Source of the DNA: Actinomycetota bacterium
Lineage (GTDB): Bacteria > Actinomycetota > Thermoleophilia > Solirubrobacterales > Solirubrobacteraceae
Direction: 5' to 3'
Length of the DNA: 64,000 bases
Assembly (NCBI GenBank): GCA_005883215.1
Contig: VAYS01000012.1
Coordinates: 70,628-134,627, forward strand
Numbering within the stretch: the first letter of the stretch is position 1; every line of letters begins with the position of its first letter. This document shows, one piece after another, positions 41,278 through 54,267 of the stretch. The notes beneath the pieces were generated by a model. That model worked only from the letters and a program-made list of their open reading frames with translations. It ran no database searches and was not told the DNA's origin. The translations under genes and the position numbers were made by a program.

Positions 41278-44200
41278 ATGACGGGTGTCTGCGCTCTGCT
41301 GACCGCGGTCCTGATGGTCGGGGTTCCCGCGGCGCGGATCTGCGCGCGAGCGCATCGCCGCTACGTGCGCCTGGAGGTGCTCGCCTACCGCGGCGACGCT
41401 CCCACCGACGGCGACCTGCTCGCCATGTACGAGGCCCTGCACAAGGCGCTGCTGGAGCGACCGCTCCGGCGCCTGGTCCTGGGCCAGCCGTCGCTCGCCC
41501 TGGAGATCGGGCTCGCCCGCGGCGCGGACGGCGCGCGTATCGCGGTCTGCTGTCCCCGTCACCGCGCGAGCGCGGTGGCCGCCGCCCTGCGCCAGGCCTA
41601 CCCGAACGCTCGTCTGTCGCCGGCGCGGGCCCCGCTCCGGGCGCCGCCCCACCTGGTTCGGCTGAGAAGGGCATGGGCGCCCGCCGCCCGCGCTTCGGAA
41701 GGCGAGCGCGGCGCGCACGACCGGGCGGCCGCGGACGGCCTGCTGATCGCGATGGCCGCCGCCGGGGCCGAGACGCACGTGCAGTTGGCGCTCACGCCCG
41801 CCCCCGAGTGGCTCGCCGCGGCCAGGAGGTCGCGGCGTCCCATCCCGCCCGCCGAGCGCGCTCCGGCGGTCTGGGATCTGCCGTCGGACACCGGCCCGCC
41901 CCCGCGGGGGCTGTTCTTCGCCGACGTGCGGGTGATGGGCCCGGACCGCCCGCGCTGCGAACAGGTGGCGGCCCATCTGCGCGCGCAGGTGACCGCCATC
42001 CGGCTGGTGGCGCGGGGCGCGGCGCTCCGACGCGCCCTCGGGCTCTACCGGCGGCGGGTCGAGCGCGGCGAGGGCAATCCCCTGCCCGCGGTGATGCGCG
42101 GACTGCACGCCACCGGCGAGCTGGTCGAGGTGTGGCAGCTGCCCTCGCCGGGCTTCGCCGCGGTTCCCGTGCCGCGCAGCGCGGTGCCGCTGGCACCCGC
42201 ACCCCCGGAGGTCTGTCGCCCCGCCGGCACCGGTCTGCTGCGCGACGCCTTGGGCCCGATCACCGTGGCGCCCGAGCTGCGCTACCTCAACCTCGCCGCG
42301 CCCGGAGCCGTGGGCCAGGGGAAGACCTCCCTGCTCCTATCCAGCGTGGCCGAGGATCTGACCCGAGATCGCTGTGCGATCGTCGTCCTCGACCCCAAGG
42401 GCGACGCGGCCGAGGGAGTGCTCGGCGTAGTGCCGGCCACACGTACGTGCACGCTGCTCGACCTCGCCCACCCGACGTGTGGCCTGCAGCCCCTGGCGCT
42501 GGACGCGCCCCCCGACGTGATCGCCGACTACGTGGTCGGCGCCCTGCGGCACCTGTTCGCCGAGGGAGACATACGCGCCAGCTCGGAGCGCTATCTGCGC
42601 AATGCCGTGCTGGGGGCGTTGGCCTATGACCGCGACGCCAGCTTGTGGGATGCGGCGCGGCTGTTGTCCGTGAGCGGCGAGGGCGAGGCGTTTCGCGAGC
42701 GCGTGGTCGCGCGGCTGCGCCGTCTTCCCGAGCTCAAGGAGGTGACCGACTTCTTCTGCACCGAGCTGCCCCTGCAGCTGCAGGGGGCGCGCGGGCCGAC
42801 CACGGCCAAGCTCGACGCGCCGGCGAACAAGCTAGCCCGGGTGCTCAATTCGCCATCGGTCAAGCGCATTCTGCTCAACGACTCGCTGCGCATCGACCTG
42901 CACGGCATCGTGGAGCGCGCCGAAGTGCTCGTCGTCAAGGGGGCGCTCGGGCGCATGGGTCCGGGCAACACGGCGGTGGTCATGCAGCTCGTTCTGGGCA
43001 TGCTGGACGCGACGCTGGCGGGACAGCAGGACGCGGTGCCGGCGGCGCAGCGCACTACGGTGGCGCTCAAGATCGACGAGGCGCCGTTGGTCATCAATCG
43101 AGGCTTCGCCCACACGCTCGCGCTCAAGCGCTCGGCCGGTCTGGAGACGCTCGCGTGCTGGCAGACCGACGCCCAGTGGATCGAGGCCGAGGTCCGCGAG
43201 CAGCTCGACGCGCTGTTCGCCCACCGGGTGTACTTCGCCACCGCGTCCGAGCGCGAGGCCGAGGCCGCCGCCCGGTTGCTCGCCGGTCCGCCCGCGACCG
43301 GGCGCTCGGCCGACCGGCGCGCTGGTCCCTTCGCCCAAACCGACCTGCGCCTTCACCTGCCCCCGCATCACGCCGCCGTGAGCCTCGTGACCGCGCGCGG
43401 TCGCCAGGCGCCGTTCATCGCGCGCACGCACCGCATCCGCCTGGATTCGCGGCTCGCCGAGCACCACCGCGCGGCGCAGGAGCGCCGCGGCGGGCGCTTC
43501 CTGGCTGACCTGCATCAGCCTCCGTGGGACGGGTGCGCCGACCGGCCCGGGGCCGGTTCGCCGCTGCTCGAGACGGGCGGAGCCGACCCGGGCGCCGGGG
43601 TCAGATCCGGCGAGCTCCCCGGGGCGCGCGGGGCCCGCGCCCGCGCGACTAACGACCGTGCGGCCCTCCCCGACAGCTTGGCCGAGCTCGTCGCTCTCGA
43701 CGGGGCGCGCCGGGTGCGGGTGCAGCGACCGTCCACGCCGGCCGGGCAACTTCCCGCGGGCCGCGACATCGAGCTGCTCCGGCTCATCGCCCAGCTGGAG
43801 TGGGCCCTGGCACCACAGCTTCACCGCCAGCTGTGGCCAGAGGCCGACCCGACGGCCACGCAGCGCCGGCTACGGACGCTGTTTCAAGACGGTTGGGTCG
43901 AGCGCTTCCAGACGCACGGGCACGACGGCGGCGCGGCCCCGATGGCCTACCGGCTGAGCCAGTCCGCGGGCGGTGCGCTGCGGGCGGCCGGCGCCTTGCC
44001 CCCCTCGCCGGTCGGCACCGGCTCCACACCCACGCCGCCCGAGACCGCCGGCGGTCGGGAGGCGCCCCACGAACTCGTCGGCGCCGCACGACGCACCCTG
44101 CACGGCGTGGGCTGGGCGCTCGCGCTCGCGCACGCCGCGGGAGCCCGGACCGCGTCGATCGGTGGGCCGGGACGAGCGCGGCGCACCCCGCCGTCCGGTC

Positions 44201-44838
44201 CCCGTGGCCGGCTGCTTGGGCCGGGGGACCTGCGGCTCGCCGGGGGACGCGTGCCCGACGGCCTGATGCGCACCACGCCCGGCGCCTCACACAGAGCGCC
44301 CGTGCGCGCGTTTCGCGCCCTCAGCCCGACAGCCATCGTCGAGCTCCGACCCTCGGCGGAGCGAGCGATGAGGACCACCCCAGCCCCCTCATTGGACGTG
44401 CTCGTCGAGTGGATCGGCGACAGCTCCGAAGCGCGGCAGGCGGCGCTGCTCGAGACCTACGATCACTTCCTCGGTGGATGGGCGGACACCGTGCCGCGCT
44501 ACCAGGGCGCGGTGGTGCCCGTGGCGGTGTTCGTGTGCCGGCACGCCGACGCCGCCGTAGCCCTGGTGAAGCTCGCCGACCGCCTGCTCACCGCCGCCCA
44601 CGCCTACGCCGGGCAGCGCCCCGACCGGTGGCGCTACGGCGGGCGAGAGCGCACCCTGTTCGTCGCCGAGGCGTCGCCCCGCCGGCGCACGCAATCGCCC
44701 ATAGGACGAGGCCAGGCGCGAGGAATTGGGGCCCCGGGGCGGCCTAGCCTCCACGGCTCTCTTCTTCTCCTTCTTCTCCTTCTTCTTCTTCTTCTTCCTC
44801 TTCCTCCTCCTCCTCGGCGGCCCCGCCTCTTCCTCTGA
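41278..44838 (+). CDS. TraG/VirB4-like conjugation ATPase fused to a replication-relaxation-type module
   Basis: 1186 aa, ATG with GGAGAAA upstream. An N-terminal hydrophobic segment (2-20) is followed by LEVLAYRGDAPTDGDLLAMY and EALHKALLERPLRRLVLGQP, the N-terminal region of actinobacterial conjugation ATPases. Walker A is PGAVGQGKTS with Lys349, Walker B is IVVLDPKGD with Asp372, and KIDEAPLVINRG and ETLACWQTDAQ are later motor motifs. Residues about 828-900 form a winged helix (LLRLIAQLEWALAPQLHRQL, TQRRLRTLFQDGWVERF). Residues about 1035-1145 (YDHFLGGWADTVPRYQGAVV, VALVKLADRLL) resemble the C-terminal part of replication-relaxation proteins. The end of the gene contains a pyrimidine microsatellite encoding poly-Leu. 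It would act at the membrane to move or process DNA. Confidence 0.75.
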   Translation: MTGVCALLTAVLMVGVPAARICARAHRRYVRLEVLAYRGDAPTDGDLLAMYEALHKALLERPLRRLVLGQPSLALEIGLARGADGARIAVCCPRHRASAVAAALRQAYPNARLSPARAPLRAPPHLVRLRRAWAPAARASEGERGAHDRAAADGLLIAMAAAGAETHVQLALTPAPEWLAAARRSRRPIPPAERAPAVWDLPSDTGPPPRGLFFADVRVMGPDRPRCEQVAAHLRAQVTAIRLVARGAALRRALGLYRRRVERGEGNPLPAVMRGLHATGELVEVWQLPSPGFAAVPVPRSAVPLAPAPPEVCRPAGTGLLRDALGPITVAPELRYLNLAAPGAVGQGKTSLLLSSVAEDLTRDRCAIVVLDPKGDAAEGVLGVVPATRTCTLLDLAHPTCGLQPLALDAPPDVIADYVVGALRHLFAEGDIRASSERYLRNAVLGALAYDRDASLWDAARLLSVSGEGEAFRERVVARLRRLPELKEVTDFFCTELPLQLQGARGPTTAKLDAPANKLARVLNSPSVKRILLNDSLRIDLHGIVERAEVLVVKGALGRMGPGNTAVVMQLVLGMLDATLAGQQDAVPAAQRTTVALKIDEAPLVINRGFAHTLALKRSAGLETLACWQTDAQWIEAEVREQLDALFAHRVYFATASEREAEAAARLLAGPPATGRSADRRAGPFAQTDLRLHLPPHHAAVSLVTARGRQAPFIARTHRIRLDSRLAEHHRAAQERRGGRFLADLHQPPWDGCADRPGAGSPLLETGGADPGAGVRSGELPGARGARARATNDRAALPDSLAELVALDGARRVRVQRPSTPAGQLPAGRDIELLRLIAQLEWALAPQLHRQLWPEADPTATQRRLRTLFQDGWVERFQTHGHDGGAAPMAYRLSQSAGGALRAAGALPPSPVGTGSTPTPPETAGGREAPHELVGAARRTLHGVGWALALAHAAGARTASIGGPGRARRTPPSGPRGRLLGPGDLRLAGGRVPDGLMRTTPGASHRAPVRAFRALSPTAIVELRPSAERAMRTTPAPSLDVLVEWIGDSSEARQAALLETYDHFLGGWADTVPRYQGAVVPVAVFVCRHADAAVALVKLADRLLTAAHAYAGQRPDRWRYGGRERTLFVAEASPRRRTQSPIGRGQARGIGAPGRPSLHGSLLLLLLLLLLLLPLPPPPRRPRLFL
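44757..44815 (+). repeat. 59-base pure pyrimidine tract, (TTC/CTT)n microsatellite
   Basis: From 44757 to 44815 the plus strand has no purine. It consists of TTC, CTT and TCC units and lies 23 bases before the stop of the ATPase gene, where it encodes a run of Leu. Such tracts can form triplex DNA and change length by slippage, which would shift the reading of the ATPase C-terminus. Confidence 0.9.
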
Positions 44839-44886
44839 CTCGTCCCGTCGCCCGCCGTGCGACGGAAGGGGCAGCCGAGGGACGGG

Positions 44887-45804
44887 ATGGCCGCCACGAC
44901 CGGGATCGGGATCGGGACAGGAGAAGCCCAGGAGCTCGTGCCGGCGCCATCATCTTGCGCGCCCCCCGGCACGGATCTGGACGGGCACGTCCTCGCCCGT
45001 TACCTCGACCCCGACCACTGCGCCCGCGAGATCGTCGTCATCCCCGCCCACGCCGGCAGCCGAGTCCTGATCGACCGCCACGCCGACACGGGCGAGGACC
45101 CGCGGCTGCTGGCCCATCTCGCGCCCGACGAGCCCGAGACCAACGCCCGCGTGGTGTGTGACGAGTACCTGCGCGATCCCCCGCCCGCGCGCTGTCGGCC
45201 GCCCCACGAGGCCGACCTCGTCGCCGTCCCCGTCTGGGCGCGGCCCGAGCTGGGAGCGGAGACGCAAGAGCTCGCGGCGCCGTCGACCGCTCCCTTCGCC
45301 CTTGCCCGGGTGTCGATCCCCGGCCGCGAGCTCGCCGAGCTGCGCTGGACGCGGTCGTCGGGCACACCGGCGGAGACGGGAGGACCGGTACTCAGCCTGC
45401 GTGCGGTGATCGGTGCGCTCGAGTCCTACGAGCCGGCGCGGACGCTGAGCGTCAGGGCGGCGGCCCGCCACCGGTCAGACCCCCGGCTCTCGGTAGCCAC
45501 TCTCTCGGCCGAGCTCGAACGGCTCGCCGCCAGCCCGATCGTGCTCAATCGCCTGCTGCGCGACGCCGTCGAAAGGGCCGTCGCCGACGGCATGAGCCTG
45601 AGCCTCATCGCGATGCGGTGCGGGAGGGTCAAGCGCGACGCGCGGGGCAACGTCTCGGGCGAGACGAGCTGGCTCGGGCGGCGGCTCGGGCTGCTGCCCG
45701 AGGGCGGGGGGAAGCGACCCACGCCTTGGATCCACAGCAACGTGCTCGCCCTGATCGCGCGGCGCGGGCTGGGCGTCAGCCCGCACGAGGTCGAGCTCGG
45801 ATGA
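44887..45804 (+). CDS. Island hypothetical protein with a helix-turn-helix-like C-terminus
   Basis: 305 aa from the ATG at 44887 with GAGGGACGGG upstream; a 7-bp hairpin (44845-44865) lies just before. I do not recognise a family. Residues 1-165 hold acidic, Pro-rich sequence without membrane segments. Residues about 170-225 are helical (RTLSVRAAARHRSDP, ATLSAELERLAASPIVLNRL). Residues 230-303 read MSLSLIAMRCGRVKRDARGN, TSWLGRRLGLLPEGG and WIHSNVLALIARRGLGVSP, which fits a DNA-binding helix-turn-helix. It is coupled to the response regulator gene by an ATGA overlap, so the two may act in one regulatory step. Confidence 0.6.
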   Translation: MAATTGIGIGTGEAQELVPAPSSCAPPGTDLDGHVLARYLDPDHCAREIVVIPAHAGSRVLIDRHADTGEDPRLLAHLAPDEPETNARVVCDEYLRDPPPARCRPPHEADLVAVPVWARPELGAETQELAAPSTAPFALARVSIPGRELAELRWTRSSGTPAETGGPVLSLRAVIGALESYEPARTLSVRAAARHRSDPRLSVATLSAELERLAASPIVLNRLLRDAVERAVADGMSLSLIAMRCGRVKRDARGNVSGETSWLGRRLGLLPEGGGKRPTPWIHSNVLALIARRGLGVSPHEVELG

Positions 45805-46517
45805 CCGCCGCGCTGCTCCTGGTGGAAGCCGATTCCGGCACGCGCGAGTTCCTGTGCGAGCAGCTCGCGGCGGACGGCTACGGGGCACGATTGACCTCCA
45901 CCGCTCGCGGCGCCGAACGGCTCCTGCGCGACGAGACCCCGGCCGCCATCGTCCTCGGCGATCTTGCTCCCGGCGTGGAGGCGACAGCGCTGCTGCGGAC
46001 CATTCGGTCGGGCCCAAGCTCCGCCTGCCCGGTGATCGTGCTCAGCCGTCGGCGCCACGAGCTCGACGTACTGCGGGCATTCGAAGCGGGCGCCGACGAC
46101 TTCGTGCCCAAGCCGTTTTCGTATCCCGAGCTCCGGGCCCGACTGCGCGCGCTGCTGCGCCGGACGCGCGCGAGGCCTTCTGTGGCGTCGCGGGTCCAGC
46201 TGGGGGAGCTGGAAATCGACCGGGCGGCCCAGCGGGTCATCCTGGGCGGGCGCCCGGTCGTCCTGCGCAAGCGCGAGTACGAGCTGCTGGTGCACCTCGC
46301 GGCCGAGCCCGAGCGCGTGTTCACCAAGTCCGAGCTGTTGCGTGACGTCTGGGGCTTCCAGGCCGGCTCGGATATGACACGCACCGTGGATAGTCACGCC
46401 AGCCGCCTGCGGCGAAAGCTCAACGGCGACGGCCACCCCGACGCCCAGGCCGCCGAGCTGGTGGTCAACATCTGGGGCGTGGGCTACTGCCTGCGCCGCC
46501 CCGGCCTGCCCGCCTGA
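45801..46517 (+). CDS. OmpR/PhoB-type response regulator, orphan within the island
   Basis: 238 aa. The ATG overlaps the TGA of the preceding gene (ATGA). Residues 1-118 are a receiver domain: acidic residues Glu9 and Asp11 (LLVEADSG), phosphoacceptor Asp54 (VLGDLAPG), Ser82 and Lys104 (PKPF). Residues about 132-232 are a winged-helix DNA-binding domain (LRKREYELLVHLAAEPERVF, TKSELLRDVWG, RTVDSHASRLRRKL, VWGVGY-like end). No histidine kinase gene is nearby, so the partner kinase is elsewhere or absent. It probably controls the island genes; two palindromes lie in the gap just downstream. Confidence 0.85.
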   Translation: MTAALLLVEADSGTREFLCEQLAADGYGARLTSTARGAERLLRDETPAAIVLGDLAPGVEATALLRTIRSGPSSACPVIVLSRRRHELDVLRAFEAGADDFVPKPFSYPELRARLRALLRRTRARPSVASRVQLGELEIDRAAQRVILGGRPVVLRKREYELLVHLAAEPERVFTKSELLRDVWGFQAGSDMTRTVDSHASRLRRKLNGDGHPDAQAAELVVNIWGVGYCLRRPGLPA

Positions 46518-46537
46518 TCGCACCGAGACCGGCCCGA

Positions 46538-46658
46538 GGACCGCGGTCCGCCAGAGGACCGGGGTGCGCGCCGTCACCTTCTCGCTCCGCCGCCTGACCG
46601 GCCCGGACCCGAGCGGCCGGCCCTGGATCCGTCGGGCCCGGCCCGACCGTGGCCACGG
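46538..46658. promoter_or_regulatory. Two 12-bp perfect palindromes in the 252-base gap before the coupling ATPase
   Basis: GGACCGCGGTCC (46538-46549) and CCGTGGCCACGG (46647-46658) are perfect dyads in the longest gene-free stretch of the island. They could be operator sites for the regulator encoded upstream, although GC-rich DNA yields such palindromes by chance. I see nothing else in this gap except the ribosome site at its end. Confidence 0.25.
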
Positions 46659-46769
46659 GCCGCGCCCCGGCTCCGGCGGTCGCACCCGCCTGTCCCTACG
46701 CGCCCGCACGGCGCGCGGACCGACGACCCCTCTTTCCCTCGCGCAAGACCACTACCGAAAGGAGCAACC

Positions 46770-48377
46770 ATGCGCGATCAATCGCTCGGGACGCCCGAGC
46801 AGTTCCTCTCCCAGACCGCCGCCGGCCTGGTTCACCTCGCGCTGATCGGAGGGCTATCGGCGCTCGCCGCGCTGGCCGTGACGCTCTATCTGCGTCGCCG
46901 GGGCGAGCGCTGGACCTGGGCTCTGGGCGGGCCGGCTCTCGCCGTTCCCGTTTGGGACATCAGCCACGCCGCGGGGTGGATTTGCGCCGTGGGCGGAGCG
47001 CTGGCGACCTGGCTTTCGCTGCGGTGGGATCAGCGCGACCGCGAGGCCGGCGGCGACCTTGCCCTCGCCGCCGCGGCGCGCCGGGGCCCGCTGCAAGTGC
47101 TCCGTCGGCGCTGGGCGCGCCGCGAGCTCAATGCCGGACGCTGGTGTGGTCCGCAGGGCCTGGTCGTCGGCCGCGATCAGGGCGGCTTGCCGGTGCGCGT
47201 TCCCTTCGGTCGCCGCGAGGGCGCGCACGTGCTCGTGGTCGGCGCCACCGGCTCGGGCAAGACCGTGACCCAGACCTGGATCACCGTCCGCGCGATCGAG
47301 CAGGGGCACGGCGCGATCGTGATCGACCCCAAGGGCGACGACGCGCTGCGCGCGGCTCTGGTGTCCCAGTCCGAGCGCAGCGGACGGCCACTGCTGGAGT
47401 GGACGCCGGACGGCCCCGCCGTCTACAACCCCTACGGAGACGGGGTCGACACGGAGATTGTCGATCGGGCGCTGGCCGCCGAGCGCTACACCGAGCCGCA
47501 CTACCTGCGCCAGGCCCAGCGCTACCTCGGCCAGGCGGTGCGGGCGATGCGCCTGGCCAACGCGCCGATCACCCCCGCGCGCCTGGTGCGCTACCTCGAA
47601 CCCATCCAGCTCGAGGTCCTGGGCCGCTCGCTTCCGGAGTCCGACGCGCGGCGGCTGTGGGCGTACCTGGACTCGCTCACGCCTCACCAGCTGCGCGACC
47701 TGGCCGGGACGCGCGACCGCCTGGCCGTGCTGGCCGAGTCCGAAGCCGGGCGCTGGCTCGATCCCGAGGCGTCGCCCAGCGCCGCCTTCACCCTGGGCCA
47801 GGCAGTGGCGGAGCGCGCCGTGGTGCTCTTTCGCCTGGAGGCCGACCGTCGCCCGCTGCTCGGCCAGATGCTGGGCGCCGCCATCCTGCAGGACGTTCTG
47901 TCCACCGCGGCCCGGCACCAGGCAGCGCCGGTGCCGACGACGGTCATGGTCGATGAGTTCTCGGCACTGGCGGCGCCCCAGGTAGCGCGGCTGTTCGCCC
48001 GCACGCGGGCGGCGGGCATCAGTCTCCTGCTCGGGACCCAGGAGCTCTCCGACCTGCGCGCCGCGGGCGGCGACACCCTCCTGCACCAGGTGCTGGGCAA
48101 CGTCTCGGCGCTGGTCGCCCACCGCCAAGTGGTGCCCGACTCGGCCGAGCTGGTGGCCGGGGTGGCGGGCACCCAGGGGACTTGGGTCAGCCAGCAGCGC
48201 ACCTCGTTCGGGCTGGCCGGGCCGGCGCCGAGCGGCACCAGCACACGCAGCCGCGGGCGGGAGTACATCGTCCACCCCGACCTCATCAAGAGCCTGGCGC
48301 CGGGTGTCGCCGCCGTGGTCAGCGCCAGCGGGCGCGAGCGCCCGCGGGTGGCCCGGGTATTTCGCGCCGCGGCCTAG
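46770..48377 (+). CDS. VirD4/TraD-type coupling ATPase
   Basis: 535 aa, ATG with AAAGGAG eight bases upstream. Two N-terminal hydrophobic segments (about 17-40 and 50-85) anchor it. The motor domain has Walker A GATGSGKT with Lys164 and Walker B IVIDPKGD with Asp186. TVMVDEFSALAAPQVARLFA, AGISLLLGTQELSDL and LGNVSALVAHRQ match the TraG/TraD C-terminal helicase-like motifs. Coupling proteins bring DNA to a type IV secretion channel; here no channel gene is visible. It differs clearly from the ATPase at 41278, so the island carries two distinct motors. Confidence 0.85.
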   Translation: MRDQSLGTPEQFLSQTAAGLVHLALIGGLSALAALAVTLYLRRRGERWTWALGGPALAVPVWDISHAAGWICAVGGALATWLSLRWDQRDREAGGDLALAAAARRGPLQVLRRRWARRELNAGRWCGPQGLVVGRDQGGLPVRVPFGRREGAHVLVVGATGSGKTVTQTWITVRAIEQGHGAIVIDPKGDDALRAALVSQSERSGRPLLEWTPDGPAVYNPYGDGVDTEIVDRALAAERYTEPHYLRQAQRYLGQAVRAMRLANAPITPARLVRYLEPIQLEVLGRSLPESDARRLWAYLDSLTPHQLRDLAGTRDRLAVLAESEAGRWLDPEASPSAAFTLGQAVAERAVVLFRLEADRRPLLGQMLGAAILQDVLSTAARHQAAPVPTTVMVDEFSALAAPQVARLFARTRAAGISLLLGTQELSDLRAAGGDTLLHQVLGNVSALVAHRQVVPDSAELVAGVAGTQGTWVSQQRTSFGLAGPAPSGTSTRSRGREYIVHPDLIKSLAPGVAAVVSASGRERPRVARVFRAAA

Positions 48378-48474
48378 CGGAGCTCCGAGCCCCGGCCAAC
48401 CGGCCCGACGTCCGGACCGGTCTGCGCGGGCGGAGCGCAAGCCCCGCCCGTCCCCAATCCCAGAAAGGAGCACC

Positions 48475-49281
48475 ATGTCCTGTCAAGGCGATCTGACGAT
48501 CGTGCATTGGATCGGGCGCCTGGGGGCGGCCACCGCCGACGACGCGGCGGCGCGCTTTGGCCTCGGCGCTCGGGCGGCGCGCGCCAAGCTGGGCGCGGCC
48601 GCGCGGGCGGGGCTGCTGGCGCGTCGGCGAATGCTCGCCGAGCAGCCGGCGCTGTACCTGGCCACCCGCTCGGGCCTGCGGGCCGCGGGCCTTGACCAGC
48701 TGGCCACCTGCCGGGTGAGCGCGGCCAGCTTCATGCACGCTCGGGCGTGCGCGCGCGTGGCGGTGGCGCTCGAGCGCGAGCATCCGAGACGGGTGATGAG
48801 CGACCGTGAGCTGCGCGCGGCCGAGCGCGGGTGCGGCCGACCGCTGGCGAGCGCCGAGCTGGGTATCGGTCGCGACGGAGAGCCGCGCCGTCATCATCCC
48901 GACCTCGTCTTGTGGCCGAGCGAGCAGGACGGCGGGCGGCCGCTGGCGATCGAGGTCGAGCTCACGGTCAAGGCGCCCCGGCGCCTGCAGGCGATCTGCC
49001 GGGCGTGGGCGCGCAACCGCCGGGTGTGCGGCGTCCTCTACTACGCCTCCCCGCCGGCGGAGCGCGCGCTGCGGCGCGCGGTCGTCGCGATGTATGCCGA
49101 GGAGTTCGTCGACGTCCGGCCACTGCGGGAGATCCTCGATCCCCGCGGGGGCGATCTGGCGACGATCCCGTCCCAAGCGGACCCTACGGTGGCGCTTGGG
49201 GAGAGCACCTATCACGAAGGAGGGTTCGCTCTAGATGTCGTCCAACCTCCACCGCGCCCTGATAACCGGGAACCTGACTAG
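48475..49281 (+). CDS. Replication-relaxation family protein
   Basis: 268 aa from the ATG at 48475, with the same AAAGGAGCACC-type ribosome site as the coupling ATPase. Residues 5-60 are a winged helix (VHWIGRLGAATADDAAARFG, ARAKLGAAARAGLLARRRML). MSDRELRAAER (108-118) and HPDLVLWPSEQDGGRPLAIE followed by VELTVK (141-166) match the conserved core of this family. Asp143, Glu160/Glu162 and Lys166 are placed as in a PD-(D/E)xK nuclease core, which is suggestive only. In plasmids of actinobacteria this family sits with TraG/TraD ATPases, as here. Its last 47 bases overlap the ssb gene in another frame. Confidence 0.75.
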   Translation: MSCQGDLTIVHWIGRLGAATADDAAARFGLGARAARAKLGAAARAGLLARRRMLAEQPALYLATRSGLRAAGLDQLATCRVSAASFMHARACARVAVALEREHPRRVMSDRELRAAERGCGRPLASAELGIGRDGEPRRHHPDLVLWPSEQDGGRPLAIEVELTVKAPRRLQAICRAWARNRRVCGVLYYASPPAERALRRAVVAMYAEEFVDVRPLREILDPRGGDLATIPSQADPTVALGESTYHEGGFALDVVQPPPRPDNREPD

Positions 49282-49654
49282 GGATCCCGAGCTGCGGGCG
49301 CTGCCCTCGGGCGCGAGCGTGTGCCGCCTGCGCGTCGCCTGCTCGACCCGGCGCAAGAACGCCGACTCGGGAGAGTGGGAGGACAAGCCCAACTACTTCG
49401 ACGTCAGCGTGTGGGGCGCGCCCGGCGAGAACTGCGCGCGCTTCCTGGCCAAGGGTCGTCCGGTAGCCGTCGACGGACGCCTCGAATGGCGCGAGTGGGA
49501 GACCGACGACGGGCAGCGCCGCCAGGCGGTGGAGATCATCGCCGACGCCGTGCAGTTCCTCGGCTCGCCGCCCGCCTCGGCGGGGGCGGGCGATGGGGCG
49601 CTGGAGGCCGCCGAGCCCGCGCTGGCGGCGTCGGGCGAGGATGTCCCCTTCTAG
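49235..49654 (+). CDS. ssb: Single-stranded DNA-binding protein
   Basis: 139 aa, shorter than typical chromosomal actinobacterial SSB. The OB fold covers about 1-108: NLHRALITGNLTRDPELRAL, VCRLRVACSTRR, NYFDVSVWGAPGENCARFLA and GRPVAVDGRLEWREWE. A short Gly/Ala linker leads to EDVPF, a variant of the acidic DDIPF tip that recruits repair and replication proteins. The start lies inside the preceding gene, with AGGAGGG eleven bases ahead of the ATG. It is probably the element's own SSB, protecting single strands during transfer or repair. Confidence 0.9.
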   Translation: MSSNLHRALITGNLTRDPELRALPSGASVCRLRVACSTRRKNADSGEWEDKPNYFDVSVWGAPGENCARFLAKGRPVAVDGRLEWREWETDDGQRRQAVEIIADAVQFLGSPPASAGAGDGALEAAEPALAASGEDVPF

Positions 49655-50354
49655 CCCTCCGCCTCCCCCGTCCGCCGCGGGGCTCCCCGGGAGGCCGGGG
49701 AGCCCGCGGCGCAGGCGGCGGCGATGGGGCCTGGCCTTCGTCGGGTGGCGGTGGGCGCTGGCCCTAATCCGGTGGCGGATGTCGACGCTCGCCCTCGCCT
49801 CGGTCGCCGCGGCGGGCGCCGCGGCCGGGCTCGGCTCGTGCTCGGGCTCCGGTACCGGCCCAGGCGCGGGCTCCGGCCCGGGCTCGGGCGGCTCGCCCGC
49901 CGGGGCCGGGCGCCCGCTCAGGCCCCCGGCGCGCCACGACGGTTGTGTGACGCGCGGCGCGCTCCCGGACCCGGCGTGCACGCCCGGCGCCGTGCTGACC
50001 ACCGATCTGACGCGCATCTGTCGGCCCGGCTACACGCCCACCGTCCGCAGCGTCGATCCCGCGCTCAAGCAACGCGTCTATCGCTCCTACGGGATAGGCC
50101 GCCACCTGCGCGGCGCCTACGAGATCGACCACCTGGTGGCGCTCGAGCTGGGCGGCGGCAACGACCCCGCCAACCTGTGGCCCGAGGCGGCCAGCCCGAC
50201 GCCTGGCTACCACGAAAAGGACGCGCTGGAGAACCACCTCCACGATCAGGTCTGCACCGGGCGCCTTCCCCTCGAACGGGCCCAGAGCCAGATCGCTACC
50301 GACTGGGTCTCGGCCTGGAAGTCGGCGGGCCAGCCCTCCGGCTACGCCAGCTGA
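49641..50354 (+). CDS. Membrane-anchored or secreted HNH-type nuclease
   Basis: 237 aa from the ATG at 49641, which lies inside the end of ssb. A later ATG (49779) would give a signal or lipoprotein start (MSTLALASVAAAGAAAGLGS then Cys) and may be the real one. After a Gly/Ser/Pro linker the conserved domain covers the last 130 residues: CRPGYTPTVRSVDPALK, GAYEIDHLVALELGGGNDPA, NLWPEA, HEKDALENHLHDQVCTG and RAQSQIATDW. This is the EIDHLVALELGG core of a widespread HNH-like family. The position after ssb suggests a DNA-processing or entry role at the membrane; that is inference. Confidence 0.7.
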   Translation: MSPSSPPPPPSAAGLPGRPGSPRRRRRRWGLAFVGWRWALALIRWRMSTLALASVAAAGAAAGLGSCSGSGTGPGAGSGPGSGGSPAGAGRPLRPPARHDGCVTRGALPDPACTPGAVLTTDLTRICRPGYTPTVRSVDPALKQRVYRSYGIGRHLRGAYEIDHLVALELGGGNDPANLWPEAASPTPGYHEKDALENHLHDQVCTGRLPLERAQSQIATDWVSAWKSAGQPSGYAS

Positions 50355-50484: not shown

Positions 50485-50913
50485 ATGGCCCAGGCAACGC
50501 AGGTGCGCGACGGTCAGACCTCAAACGCGTCCGTCGCTGAGCTGGTCAAGCAGCTTTCAGAGCAGACGAGCCGGCTGGCCCGCGAGGAGGTCGAGCTGGC
50601 CAAGGCGGAGCTCGCCGAGAAGGGCAAGCGCGCGGGCATCGGCGCCGGCATGTTCGGCGGGGCGGGCATGCTCGGCTTCTACGCCCTGGGGGCGCTCACC
50701 GCGTGCGCGATCCTCGGCCTGGCGACCGCCGTCGCGGGGTGGCTGGCCGCGCTGATCGTCGGCGCCGTCTACGGGGCGATCGCCGGGGGGCTGGCGCTCG
50801 CCGGCAAGGGCAAGGTCCAGCAAGCGACCCCGCCGGTTCCCGAGCAAGCCACCGAGAGCGTGAAGGAGGACGTGCAATGGGCCAAGACCCGGGCGCAGAC
50901 AGCACGACGGTGA
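50485..50913 (+). CDS. Actinobacterial Holin-X/DUF1469-type membrane protein
   Basis: 142 aa, ATG with AGGAGG. An amphipathic helix (SVAELVKQLSEQTSRLAREEV, split here after EQT) covers residues about 12-50, followed by two membrane helices (about 55-80 and 84-108) and a charged tail. This is the Holin-X (PF07332) arrangement. Despite the name, these chromosomal proteins are not known to act in phage lysis. The start of the DUF3618 gene overlaps its end by 37 bases, and both occur with YihY in actinobacterial envelope-stress clusters. Confidence 0.82.
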   Translation: MAQATQVRDGQTSNASVAELVKQLSEQTSRLAREEVELAKAELAEKGKRAGIGAGMFGGAGMLGFYALGALTACAILGLATAVAGWLAALIVGAVYGAIAGGLALAGKGKVQQATPPVPEQATESVKEDVQWAKTRAQTARR

Positions 50914-51224
50914 CCGAGCCGCGCGGGCCCGAGGAGATCCGCCAGGACATCCAGAGCACCCGCCACGAGCTGGGTGACACCGTCGCCGCGCTGGCATACA
51001 AGGCCGACGTCAAGGCGCGGACCAGGGAGAAGGTGTCCGGCGCCAAGCAGTCGGTGGCCCACAAGAAGGACGAGGTGGTGGGCAAGGCCAAGCAGGCTTC
51101 GCCCGACGCCGCCGCCGGGGCCGCGGCTCAGGCTTCGGAGAAGGCGCGCCGAAACCCCCTTGCGCTGGCCGCCGCGGGCGCCTTCCTGGCCGGGGTACTC
51201 GTCGGACGCTCGAGCAACCGGTAG
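50877..51224 (+). CDS. DUF3618 protein
   Basis: 115 aa from the ATG at 50877, preceded by GAAGGAGG. The conserved start EEIRQDIQSTRHELGDTVAA (about 19-38) is the DUF3618 signature. An Ala/Lys-rich helical region follows, and one C-terminal membrane helix (NPLALAAAGAFLAGVLVGR). Function unknown. The gene overlaps the Holin-X gene and precedes YihY by 37 bases, so it belongs to the same module. Confidence 0.82.
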   Translation: MGQDPGADSTTVTEPRGPEEIRQDIQSTRHELGDTVAALAYKADVKARTREKVSGAKQSVAHKKDEVVGKAKQASPDAAAGAAAQASEKARRNPLALAAAGAFLAGVLVGRSSNR

Positions 51225-51261
51225 CGCCCCATCCGCCGATAGCGACTTGAAGGAGGACGAG

Positions 51262-52299
51262 ATGGCTCAGGCGACACGTCGCAAACCGGCATCGAGCGGT
51301 TCGGGATCGAGCGGCCCGGACCGGCCGACCAAGCCCAGCCACCTGGGCGGCCGCTCCTGGTGGGGCGTGGGCCGGCGCACGGTCCGCGAGTTCCGGGCGG
51401 ACAACCTGACCGACTGGGCGGCGGCGCTCACCTACTACGGGATCCTGGCGATCTTCCCGGCGCTCATCGCGCTGGTGGCGATCCTGGGTCTGATCGGCCA
51501 CTCGGCCACCCAGCCGCTGATCGACAACCTGGGCAAGGTGGCCCCCGGGGTGGCCCCCGGGCCGGCCAAGCAGATCTTCACCAGCGCGATCCAGAACCTG
51601 CAGAAGAGCCAGGGGGCGGCGGGTGTCATCTTCGTCACCGGTGTGGCCGGCGCGCTGTGGTCGGCGTCGGGCTACGTCGCCGCGTTCATGCGGGCGTCCA
51701 ACGCGATCTATGACGTGGAGGAGGGTCGCCCGGCGTGGAAGACGCTGCCCATTCGCGTGGGCGTGACGCTCGTCCTGATCGTGCTCCTGGCGCTGACCGC
51801 CGTGGCTGTGACGACCACCGGCGGGCTGGCCAAGCAGGTCGGCAACCTGGTGGGCGTCGGCGGCACCGCCGTCACCGTCTGGGAGATCGCCAAGTGGCCT
51901 GTGCTGCTGGTGGTGATCAGCCTGATGTTCGCGCTGCTGTACTGGGCGGCGCCGAACGCCAGGCAGCCCGGCTTTCGCTGGCTGAGCCCCGGCGGCCTGG
52001 TCGCCGTGCTGATGTGGATCGCCGCCTCGGCCGGGTTTGCCTTCTACGTGGCCAACTTCGGCTCCTACAACAAGACCTACGGCGCGCTGGGCGGCGTGAT
52101 CATCTTCCTCGTCTGGCTGTGGATCTCCAACCTCGCCGTCCTGGTGGGCGCCGAGCTCAACGCCGAGCTGGAGCGAGGACGGCGGCTGGAGGCGGGCGAG
52201 CCGGCCGAGCGCGAGCCCTTCGTCGAGCCCAGGGACACCCGCAAGCTCGACGGGCGCCGCGCGCCGGGCGGGGGTCGCGCCCAGGGAGCCGCGACCTAG
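51262..52299 (+). CDS. YihY/BrkB-family inner-membrane protein
   Basis: 345 aa from the ATG at 51262 with GAAGGAGG upstream. A Ser/Gly-rich N-terminus (1-35) precedes six hydrophobic segments (about 62-86, 125-145, 165-190, 205-225, 235-260 and 265-290). Motifs are DNLTDWAAALTYYGILAIFP at the first helix, GALWSASGYVAAFMRASNAIY in the middle and FLVWLWISNLAVLVGAELNA at the last helix; these define the family. The role is unknown (formerly misassigned as RNase BN). The charged tail is variable. Confidence 0.9.
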   Translation: MAQATRRKPASSGSGSSGPDRPTKPSHLGGRSWWGVGRRTVREFRADNLTDWAAALTYYGILAIFPALIALVAILGLIGHSATQPLIDNLGKVAPGVAPGPAKQIFTSAIQNLQKSQGAAGVIFVTGVAGALWSASGYVAAFMRASNAIYDVEEGRPAWKTLPIRVGVTLVLIVLLALTAVAVTTTGGLAKQVGNLVGVGGTAVTVWEIAKWPVLLVVISLMFALLYWAAPNARQPGFRWLSPGGLVAVLMWIAASAGFAFYVANFGSYNKTYGALGGVIIFLVWLWISNLAVLVGAELNAELERGRRLEAGEPAEREPFVEPRDTRKLDGRRAPGGGRAQGAAT

Positions 52300-52330: not shown

Positions 52331-52771
52331 ATGCCGGTCGACACCAAGGCAGTGGGCAAGAGCTTTCCCCCCGCGGTGTATGCGGTGGGGCGCGAGAAGG
52401 TGCGCGAGTACGCCCACGCGGTGGGGGAGACCAACCCGATCCACCTCGACCCCGACGCGGCCCGCGCAGCCGGCTTTCGCGACGTGGTCGCGCCCCCGAT
52501 GTTCGCCGTGGTCTACAGCGCTCCGGCGATGGCGCCGGCGATCTTCGACCCCGAGGTGGGGATGAACTTCGCCCTCATGGTCCACGGCGGCCAGGAGTTT
52601 CAGTGGGGCGAGCTGGTGATCGCGGGCGACGAGATCACCACCACGGCCACGGTCAAGGACATCTCCGACAAGGACGGCCGCACCTTCTACGTCTTTGAGA
52701 CCGTTTCCACCAACCAGGAAGGCGACAACGTCTGCACCGGCACCTGGACCAACATCGTCCGAGGAGGGTGA
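52331..52771 (+). CDS. MaoC-like dehydratase, HadA-type N-terminal hot-dog domain
   Basis: 146 aa. A single hot-dog fold resembling the N-terminal (substrate-side) half of (3R)-hydroxyacyl dehydratases: SFPPAVYAVGREKVREYAHA, GETNPIHLDPDAAR and GGQEFQWGELVIAGD. The NPIH motif is seen, but the paired gene carries the catalytic Asp-His in fuller form. It would pair with the next product to form a HadA-HadB type heterodimer that dehydrates 3-hydroxyacyl thioesters. The genes are adjacent, with GGAGG of the next gene overlapping this stop. Confidence 0.82.
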   Translation: MPVDTKAVGKSFPPAVYAVGREKVREYAHAVGETNPIHLDPDAARAAGFRDVVAPPMFAVVYSAPAMAPAIFDPEVGMNFALMVHGGQEFQWGELVIAGDEITTTATVKDISDKDGRTFYVFETVSTNQEGDNVCTGTWTNIVRGG

Positions 52772-52773
52772 GC

Positions 52774-53166
52774 ATGGCCGACTTCACAGCCGGAGAGCGC
52801 ATTCCCGAGCTACGCGTGACCCCGGACAAGTACCTCACCTACCGCTACGCGGGCGCCTCCGGGGACTACAACCCGATCCACATCGACGAGGAGTTCGCCA
52901 AGGCGGTCGGCCTGCCCGGGCGCATCCTGCACGGGCTCTACTCGATGGCCCAGGTGGCCCGCGCCCAGACCGAGGCGGCCGGTGGCCCGCAGGGACTCAA
53001 GCGATTGGCGGTCCAGTTTCGGGGCATGGGCTTTCCCGAGCAGGAGATCGTGGTCCGCGGCACGGTGCGCGAGCGCCGCGACGGCCGCGCGGTGATCGAC
53101 ACCGTCGCCCAGCAGGGTGACAACCAGATCATCCGCAACGCCGAGGCCGAGGTCGAGGTGCAGTAG
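52774..53166 (+). CDS. MaoC-like dehydratase, HadB-type catalytic hot-dog domain
   Basis: 130 aa from the ATG at 52774 (GGAGG seven bases before); a GTG at 52768 overlapping the previous stop is also possible. The hydratase motif is YAGASGDYNPIHIDEEFAKA with the catalytic Asp and His, followed by GLPGRILHGLYSMAQVAR. It is the catalytic partner of the preceding HadA-like protein in fatty acid elongation or degradation; the chain length is not known. A GC-rich hairpin region follows before hrcA. Confidence 0.85.
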   Translation: MADFTAGERIPELRVTPDKYLTYRYAGASGDYNPIHIDEEFAKAVGLPGRILHGLYSMAQVARAQTEAAGGPQGLKRLAVQFRGMGFPEQEIVVRGTVRERRDGRAVIDTVAQQGDNQIIRNAEAEVEVQ

Positions 53167-53200
53167 GGCTTCGCCCCTGAGGGGGCTTCGCCGGTCTCCC

Positions 53201-53222
53201 GGCCCCGGCGCACGCCGGAGCC
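53201..53222. promoter_or_regulatory. GC-rich inverted repeat before hrcA
   Basis: GGC-C-CCGGCG-CA-CGCCGG-A-GCC pairs over nine of ten positions and ends 19 bases before the hrcA start. The usual HrcA operator (CIRCE, TTAGCACTC-N9-GAGTGCTAA) is not seen in this gap. It may be a leader hairpin, the hadAB terminator or a different operator. Confidence 0.35.
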
Positions 53223-53241
53223 CGTCCCTAGAATCGAGAGC

Positions 53242-54267
53242 ATGCTCACCGCCCGCCAGGAGCTCATCCTGCGCAAGGTGGTCGAGGGCTACCTGCGCGC
53301 CGGACAGCCGGTCGCCTCCAAGGCGATCGCCGCCGAGCCGGGCATGGAGTATGGCTCCTCGACCATCCGCAACGAGCTCGCCGTGCTCGAGGAGCACGGG
53401 CTGCTCGGCCACCCCCACACCTCGGCCGGACGGGTTCCCACCGAGGCCGGCCAGCGCTACGTGGTCGACCGCCTGCTCGAGTCGGGAGTGCCGGTGCGCG
53501 CCTCCGAGCAGCTCGGGCTCTCGCTCATGCAGCGCGAGGTCGACGAGGCCATGCGCGCCACCACCGAGACCCTGGCCGAGGTCACCAACCTGCTGGCGAT
53601 CGTAACCGCCCCTCCGGTGGAGACGGCGACCATCCGCCACATCGAGGTGCTGGCCCTGCGCGCGGACCTGGTGATGGTGGTGATCATCACCTCGACCGGC
53701 GCGGTGTCCAAGCGGATCTTCACCTTTGCCCAGGGGGTCGATGCCGGCCTGGTGGCGTGGGCGGGCGAGTACCTCAACGAGCGGCTCTCGGGCCTCGGTC
53801 TGGGGGCGCGGACGCTTCACCAGCGCCTCGCCGAGCCCAGCCTCGGGCCGACCGAGCTCGCCTTCATCCGCCAGCTGACGCCGGCCTTCACCCAGCTGGC
53901 CGACACCTCCGAGGAGACCGTCTACTTCGAAGGCGCTTCGCACCTGTTCTCCGAGGAAGGCGTGCAGGAGATCTCCGAGATCAACGAGCTGATGGTGCTT
54001 CTCGAGCGCCGGGTGAGCCTCTTGCGGGTGATGCGCGCCGCCCTGTCCGAGCGCGACGTCTACGTGCGCATCGGCTCGGAGAACGAGTCGCCCGCCCTGC
54101 GCTCGCTGGCCCTGGTCGCCTCCGGCTATGGCCTCCCCGCCCGCAAGTTGGGGGCGGTGTCGGTGATCGGTCCGGTGCGCATGGACTACGAGCGCGCGAT
54201 CCTGACCGTGCGCGAGGCGGCGGACAAGCTCTCGCGCTTCACGCTCGACGTCTATGGCCACGGCTAG
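53242..54267 (+). CDS. hrcA: Heat-inducible transcription repressor HrcA
   Basis: 341 aa. An N-terminal winged helix (about 1-75: [60 protein letters not shown]) is followed by the GAF-like and dimerisation parts, with [16 protein letters not shown] and the closing [14 protein letters not shown] that typify the family. It represses chaperone genes and is inactivated when GroE is titrated. It is followed directly by dnaJ, overlapping by 14 bases if dnaJ starts at 54254. dnaK, grpE and groEL are not in the window. Confidence 0.95.

What the first reader, a model, noticed from the sequence alone, without database searches (positions are those of the whole stretch)
41278..50354. Compact DNA-handling island with two T4SS-type motors and no channel or relaxase
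Seven same-strand genes, most tightly packed (ATGA and long overlaps), encode a TraG/VirB4-like ATPase fused to a replication-relaxation module, a VirD4/TraD-like ATPase, a second replication-relaxation protein, SSB, a membrane HNH-like nuclease, a response regulator and a DNA-binding-like protein. The families belong to actinobacterial conjugation, yet relaxase, integrase, pilin and channel proteins are absent and the flanks look chromosomal. Either it is an eroded integrative element or a conserved lineage-specific system for moving or degrading DNA at the membrane.
Basis: partly seen in the sequence, partly recalled or inferred. Interest (0 to 1): 0.8.

Follow-up and report, generated by a model that had tools for sequence, protein, structure and literature searches.

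The report
Chromosomal two-part conjugation machine, vertically inherited
A small clade of soil bacteria carries what looks like a complete DNA-transfer (conjugation) machine, split over two fixed chromosomal sites and passed down vertically instead of riding on a mobile element; if it works, these bacteria have made a parasite's gene-transfer machine their own.

Summary
The genes are real and intact, but two key readings change. (1) A relaxase is present: the "second replication-relaxation protein" (48475-49281) is a winged-helix plus PD-(D/E)XK protein of the MOBC relaxase group. D143, E160, E162 and K166 are invariant in 19 homologues, and it matches the cognate gene of a plasmid typed MOBC (hhalign E 2.5e-14). 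It sits next to its VirD4 coupling protein. (2) A channel is present, at another locus of the same genome: a TcpC/E/F(VirB4)/VirB6-type mating-pore operon on contig C6, whose orthologues keep gene order and site. The first locus (ATPase-relaxase-like fusion, orphan protein, atypical response regulator, coupling protein, relaxase, SSB) lies upstream of maoC-maoC-hrcA-dnaJ in three genera (g1, g2, about 20 species of g14) that form one clade on core genes. No integrase is found at either locus. Gene trees largely follow the host, frames are intact, dN/dS is about 0.1-0.4. This is neither an eroded ICE nor a channel-less DNA degrader. Best reading: a domesticated, vertically inherited conjugation apparatus split over two loci, probably exporting chromosomal ssDNA. 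Anatomy and inheritance are shown; DNA transfer is inferred. P7 (HNH-like) is not part of the conserved system.

The parts
41278..44838 (+). P1: membrane-anchored VirD4/TraD-like ATPase fused to a C-terminal Replic_Relax (wHTH + degenerate PD-(D/E)XK-like) domain, 1186 aa
   Evidence: PF13814 5.3e-6 in window, 7e-13 in an orthologue; weak TIGR03743 TraD matches; Walker A/B invariant in 10 orthologues; N-terminal hydrophobic helix
44887..45804 (+). P2: orphan protein (no Pfam/NCBIfam match), the most constant part of locus A; paralogues occur in integrase-bearing elements beside ArdC-like, ParB-like and SSB genes
   Evidence: AF2 model pLDDT 81, no PDB fold match
45801..46517 (+). P3: OmpR-type response regulator, no neighbouring kinase; receiver residues degenerate in most orthologues
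   Evidence: PF00486 4.7e-19, PF00072 6.4e-12; alignment of orthologues
46770..48377 (+). P4: VirD4-type coupling protein (T4CP), N-terminal membrane anchor, Walker A GATGSGKT and Walker B VDE
   Evidence: PF10412 2.9e-14, PF12696 1.2e-8; invariant motifs in 16 orthologues; best plasmid hit is the T4CP of a plasmid typed MOBC
48475..49281 (+). P5: MOBC-type relaxase: winged HTH + PD-(D/E)XK core, invariant D143, E160, E162, K166
   Evidence: AF2 pLDDT 86.8; hhalign E 2.5e-14 to CTH_10018 of a MOBC-typed plasmid
49235..49654 (+). P6: second (accessory) SSB; the housekeeping SSB is elsewhere (G000:C33)
   Evidence: PF00436 9e-31; genome copies
52331..54267 (+). Conserved right-hand flank marking the fixed site: MaoC1, MaoC2, HrcA (then DnaJ, PrmA)
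   Evidence: same order downstream of the block in g14 and g2 loci; same order without the block in other genera

Best explanation
The island is the DNA-processing half of a chromosomal, vertically inherited conjugation-type secretion system. P5, a MOBC-type PD-(D/E)XK relaxase, nicks the chromosome at an origin of transfer not yet located. The strand is covered by the dedicated SSB (P6) and handed to the membrane-anchored VirD4 motor P4, with the ATPase-relaxase-like fusion P1 as second motor or recruitment factor. It leaves through a TcpC/E/F/VirB6-type pore encoded at a second fixed locus (G000:C6 in the window's genome). P3 and perhaps P2 regulate the P2-P6 operon. Both halves descend from mobile elements and were captured by the common ancestor of three genera. 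Shown here: gene identities, fixed sites, co-inheritance, purifying selection. Inferred: that the two loci work together, that the substrate is chromosomal ssDNA, and the direction of transport.
For: Locus A: same block upstream of maoC-maoC-hrcA in G013, G001, G034 and in most of the further g14 loci fetched. Core genes put g1+g2+g14 in one clade (SH-aLRT 99); hrcA-site P4 copies form one clade apart from mobile homologues (89). P2 occurs only in these genera in 232 genomes of the order apart from two marginal hits (E 2e-4). Relaxase. Locus B: TcpC-TcpE-VirB4/TcpF-VirB6-SLT operon with shared order and flanks; fixed-type VirB4 60-72% identical to the window genome's copy in g1, g2 and g14 only, other family hits at most 48%; 17 fixed copies form one clade (100). 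Co-occurrence: VirB4 in 20 of 25 locus-A genomes against 9 of 56 other relatives (not corrected for phylogeny). dN/dS mostly 0.2-0.4 in both loci. Distances track core genes: VirB4 r 0.87, P1 0.80, SSB 0.74, P5 0.73, P4 0.71 within g14. No integrase at either locus.
Against: No expression, nicking or transfer data, and no oriT identified. VirB4 was not found in G001 (93% complete), G166, G180, G183, G168, so some carriers may lack the pore. G178 keeps the pore but has lost P4/P5; G168's block lacks P4/P5; G174 and G025 (95%, 91% complete) lack the system. In g2 the coupling protein is shortened and lacks the membrane anchor seen elsewhere. P4's correlation with core genes is only 0.51 over all genera. 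P5's NCBIfam MobC match is below cut-off. Most genomes are MAGs.
Confidence: 0.6

Rival explanations
1. Eroded remnant of an integrated conjugative or mobilizable element, in decay at the hrcA site.
For: Gene families belong to ICE/IME; the P5-P4 pair also occurs in integrase-bearing elements, including one in the same genome (L181); some species have lost P3, P4 or P5.
Against: Same site in three genera, intact frames in nearly all orthologues, dN/dS 0.1-0.4, trees and distances that follow the host, no integrase or att remnant seen.
Confidence: 0.07
2. Locus A is a selfish, integrase-less mobilizable element that uses the pores of passing ICEs; locus B is an independent apparatus.
For: Relaxase+T4CP without a local pore is the IME pattern, and PF13814 relaxases with VirD4 coupling proteins are known from IMEs (PMC5357655, PMC12479173). 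Several carriers lack a detected VirB4.
Against: No mobility seen: one site in three genera, host-like phylogeny. VirB4 of one fixed type co-occurs in 20 of 25 carriers.
Confidence: 0.12
3. A domesticated secretion system that exports proteins or releases DNA into the medium, not cell-to-cell conjugation.
For: ICEs are thought to be domesticated into protein transport systems often (PMC3158045); G178 keeps the pore without P4/P5.
Against: Retained relaxase with all catalytic residues under purifying selection and a dedicated SSB point to a DNA substrate.
Confidence: 0.15
4. DNA import or competence machine, as proposed for archaeal Ced.
For: Chromosomal VirB4/VirB6-type machine; weak CedB/CedD profile matches of P4.
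Against: Ced/Ted lack a relaxase (PMC9905601); here a MOBC relaxase and T4CP are kept, which fits export.
Confidence: 0.06

Closest known systems
MOBC relaxase + VirD4 coupling protein modules (pAD1 TraX, CloDF13 MobC; pCCELLA01 CTH_10018/CTH_10017; streptococcal IMEs with PF13814 relaxase)
   Same: wHTH + PD-(D/E)XK relaxase next to its VirD4 motor; P5 and P4 align with the pCCELLA01 pair
   Different: Those sit on plasmids or integrase-bearing elements; here the pair is at a fixed chromosomal site in three genera, with SSB, response regulator, P2 and an ATPase-relaxase-like fusion
Tcp-type (MPF FA) mating pores of Tn916/pCW3-like elements
   Same: TcpC, TcpE, TcpF/VirB4, VirB6-like membrane protein, transglycosylase
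   Different: Not linked to a relaxase or T4CP; fixed chromosomal operon, vertically inherited; has its own sigma/anti-sigma-like gene
Archaeal Ced/Ted DNA-transfer systems
   Same: Conjugation machinery encoded on the chromosome, domesticated (PMC9905601)
   Different: Archaeal, no relaxase, import proposed; here bacterial with relaxase and T4CP retained
Mycobacterial distributive conjugal transfer
   Same: Chromosomal DNA exchange in an actinobacterium without a mobile element (PMC9905601 discussion)
   Different: Type VII-based; no T4SS pore or MOBC relaxase
Rickettsiales vir homologue T4SS (from memory, not tested)
   Same: Vertically inherited T4SS genes scattered over the chromosome
   Different: Thought to secrete effectors, no relaxase; Gram-negative intracellular bacteria

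Membership tests
MOBC relaxases (PF13814 / MobC) | N-terminal winged HTH followed by PD-(D/E)XK core | tested here: met
   AF2 model pLDDT 86.8: helices 3-44, wing strands 48-63, then alpha-beta-beta-beta-alpha-beta; PDB fold search matched the wHTH but gave no strong hit for the nuclease part
MOBC relaxases (PF13814 / MobC) | Conserved catalytic acidic residues and lysine | tested here: met
   D143, E160, E162, K166 invariant in 19 sequences; aligned with the same positions of CTH_10018
MOBC relaxases (PF13814 / MobC) | Sequence similarity to known MOBC | tested here: met
   hhalign prob 98.3, E 2.5e-14 over 182 columns to a gene beside the T4CP on a plasmid typed MOBC by PLSDB; curated NCBIfam/Pfam cut-offs not reached by P5 itself
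MOBC relaxases (PF13814 / MobC) | Nicks oriT in vitro or in vivo | not testable with these tools
   no biochemical data
VirD4-type coupling protein | Membrane anchor, Walker A/B, TrwB/TraG domain | tested here: met
   (anchor missing in g2 copies)
ICE / IME | Integrase and excision, variable sites, patchy distribution | tested here: not met
   no integrase at loci A or B; fixed sites in three genera
Tcp-type conjugative pore | VirB4/TcpF ATPase, VirB6-like, TcpC/VirB8-like, TcpE | tested here: met
   NF052333 TcpF 1.2e-52; CD3337/EF1877 7.6e-13; TcpC 1.2e-8; TcpE 6.4e-5, below its cut-off
Domesticated conjugation apparatus (Ced/Ted kind) | Machinery encoded on the chromosome and vertically inherited | tested here: met
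Domesticated conjugation apparatus (Ced/Ted kind) | Mediates transfer of cellular DNA | not testable with these tools
   needs mating or DNA-transfer assays
Anti-phage defence | Matches to defence system components | tested here: not met
   only ATPase matches of P4 (mad8 9.8e-16, HerA); no other MADS-like gene at the locus

The most novel reading that the evidence does not exclude
A bacterial clade has fully domesticated a conjugation machine, with relaxase, coupling protein and Tcp-type pore in two unlinked chromosomal loci, as a housekeeping system for sending chromosomal DNA to neighbouring cells: a bacterial counterpart of archaeal Ced/Ted that keeps its relaxase.
Probability: 0.45. Interest if true: 0.92.

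Novelty: new variant of a known kind. Interest (0 to 1): 0.8.

Why it matters
Bacterial conjugation machines are nearly always carried by mobile elements and serve those elements. Beltran et al. (PMC9905601) state that domestication of the apparatus for DNA transfer had, to their knowledge, not been reported outside the archaea they studied. A vertically inherited bacterial set with relaxase would make host-controlled gene exchange directly testable. It also shows that proximity-based scans would misread such a system as a mobilizable element plus a relaxase-less T4SS.

Tried and rejected
oriT search: repeats and hairpins in the intergenic gaps gave no shared oriT. A 24-28 bp palindrome (TCCGAGAnCCCCTTAAGGGGnTCTCGGA type) upstream of P2 in g14 is kept in G168, whose block lacks P4/P5, so an operator is more likely than oriT, and it is absent from the window. 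Defence system: PADLOC gives only ATPase matches. P2 function: no family and no PDB fold match. Fold search of P5 against PDB was dominated by wHTH and methyltransferase matches and did not independently prove the nuclease fold; the claim rests on topology, invariant residues and hhalign. pSt0 ORF as relaxase: no similarity. Lon-yihY as a site for locus B common to all genera: true in g14 only; g1 shares the FAD-reductase side, g2 the F11/F13-F15 side. The Francia 2013 TraX paper is not held.

Full report
1. Observation. The seven ORFs exist at the stated coordinates, all on the plus strand and with coding-like composition. Family scans give P1 = Replic_Relax at 834-933 behind an ATPase, P3 = OmpR-type response regulator, P4 = TrwB/TraG coupling protein, P6 = SSB; P2, P5 and P7 get no Pfam family above threshold. 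The window is part of a 3.29 Mb genome (G000, contig C54). GC content does not separate the island from its flanks. The right flank is housekeeping: maoC, maoC, hrcA, dnaJ, prmA, phoH, ybeY, era, trp genes.

2. Locus A is fixed. A search with P4 in 61 relatives gave hits in 15. Reading the neighbourhoods split them into two kinds. In G013, G034 (genus g14) and G001 (g2) P2, P4 and P6, with P1, P3 and P5 in most, lie directly upstream of maoC-maoC-hrcA-dnaJ, as in the window. In more distant relatives a P5-P4 pair often lies beside integrases, excisionases or pore genes. P2, an orphan protein, was found in 29 of 232 genomes of the order: g1, g2 and g14 plus two marginal hits. Of the g14 and g2 loci then fetched, nearly all non-mobile ones that reach the site have the block at the same place; other genera have maoC-maoC-hrcA without it. 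P7 occurs in none of the orthologous loci. In G170 an inversion has moved the SSB-maoC-hrcA genes relative to the block. Named records of the same loci are Solirubrobacterales soil, bog and permafrost MAGs.

3. Vertical inheritance. On MaoC1+MaoC2+HrcA+DnaJ the genera g1, g2, g14 are one clade (SH-aLRT 99). The hrcA-site P4 copies are one clade apart from mobile homologues (89) with many of the same sub-groups. The P2 tree is too weakly resolved to decide. Distances correlate with core genes for P1 (0.80), P2 (0.60), P3 (0.75), P4 (0.51; 0.71 within g14), P5 (0.73), P6 (0.74), all p at most 0.02. dN/dS in close pairs is about 0.1-0.4 against about 0.1-0.2 for neighbours, with synonymous distances somewhat higher than in the neighbours. 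The hrcA-site P4 orthologues have open frames without internal stops. This argues against erosion and for function.

4. P5 is a MOBC-type relaxase. Aligned P5 homologues keep D143, E160, E162, K166 in the pattern H-x-PD(x)n-E-V-E-L-x-x-K. The AlphaFold model (pLDDT 86.8) is a winged helix followed by an alpha-beta-beta-beta-alpha-beta core with these residues on or beside the expected strands. NCBIfam's MobC family touches the catalytic stretch (E 0.009 and 0.002, below cut-off). The closest plasmid homologue of P4 is CTH_10017 on pCCELLA01, typed 'mobilizable, MOBC' by PLSDB; the gene before it, CTH_10018, matches the P5 profile with E 2.5e-14 over 182 columns, catalytic motif included, and matches MobC_subf at 8e-14. 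The literature classes PF13814 proteins as MobC relaxases (PMC5357655), notes VirD4 partners in IMEs (PMC12479173), and describes MOBC as related to PD-(D/E)XK enzymes with an N-terminal winged helix in TraX (PMC12857230). The PDB fold search did not give an independent nuclease match.

5. The channel is elsewhere in the genome. A VirB4 query from a relative's ICE hit the window genome (C6:3659-6127) and most carriers of locus A, but only 9 of 56 other relatives (Fisher p 5e-8 without phylogenetic correction). The hits lie in one operon: sigma/anti-sigma-like, TcpC, small membrane protein, TcpE, VirB4/TcpF, VirB6-like, transglycosylase. In g14 it lies between lon-yihY and an FAD reductase; g1 shares the FAD-reductase side and g2 the following genes. 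With the window genome's VirB4 as query, the fixed type is 60-72% identical in g1, g2, g14 and all other family hits are at most 48% (this also adds G189 as a carrier). Seventeen fixed copies form one clade with support 100 and a long stem; distances track core genes at r 0.87; dN/dS 0.16-0.29 for VirB4, up to 0.65 for VirB6. In G170 the two loci lie on different contigs at positions that put them at least about 227 kb apart (coordinates).

6. Other parts. The SSB is an extra copy; the carriers tested also have a housekeeping SSB. P3 lacks the phospho-acceptor or the lysine in most orthologues, so it is probably phosphorylation-independent. P1 and P4 have intact Walker motifs and N-terminal membrane helices; the nuclease-like part of P1 appears degenerate. 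In g14 a locus-specific palindrome sits about 66 bp upstream of the -35 box of the P2 promoter, a likely operator; the window lacks it. Paralogues of P2 occur in integrase-bearing elements with ArdC-like, ParB-like and SSB genes, which suggests that locus A came from such an element.

7. Mechanism. P5 nicks, P6 protects the strand, P4 (and P1) drive it to and through the TcpC/E/F/VirB6 pore. The steps from nicking to export are inferred from family knowledge. Weak points: no oriT, no VirB4 found in five carriers (four of them below 90% complete), G178 and G168 without P4/P5 at the locus, G174 and G025 without the system.

8. Comparison and novelty. Components are all of known families; the arrangement, a relaxase-T4CP module and a Tcp-type pore at two separate, vertically inherited chromosomal sites, is what differs. 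The nearest concept is the domesticated archaeal Ced/Ted systems, which lack a relaxase (PMC9905601). Guglielmini et al. discuss T4SS without a nearby relaxase as MOBless, and domestication into protein transport (PMC3158045); locus B would be so labelled although a relaxase is encoded elsewhere. My literature search was limited to open-access papers, so prior description cannot be excluded.

Noticed in passing
L027:6012-6037, L032:7624-7648, L097:6789-6815, L104:11001-11025 and about 12 further g14 loci: Locus-specific palindrome of the TCCGAGAnCCCCTTAAGGGGnTCTCGGA type at a nearly fixed distance (about 66 bp) upstream of the -35 box of the P2 promoter; probable operator.
   Followed up: partly
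L109, L110, L112, L103, L119: Integrase-bearing elements in g14 genomes carrying P2 paralogues with ArdC-like, ParB-like and SSB genes; G170 alone has four such copies.
   Followed up: partly
L181:5505-10487 (G000:C8): Compact mobilizable element in the window's own genome: tyrosine integrase, excisionase-like proteins, VirD4-like ATPase (440 aa) and a 199-aa MOBC-like protein.
   Followed up: no
L025:8808-11085 (G000:C29): Second P5-P4 pair (44% and 50% identical) in the window's genome, with no integrase seen nearby; a fragment of another coupling protein lies at C29:97740.
   Followed up: no
L032 and L184 (G034:C100): A row of several Replic_Relax-like genes, one fused, upstream of P2 in place of P1/P5: apparent expansion or replacement of the relaxase family.
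   Followed up: no
window 44740-44838: CT-rich low-complexity tail of P1 encoding a poly-leucine stretch absent from orthologues; possible slippage or assembly error at the 3' end.
   Followed up: no
window 50485-52299: Three genes (phage-holin-like, DUF3618-like, YihY) between the SSB and maoC1 only in the window; in g14 a different YihY lies beside locus B.
   Followed up: partly
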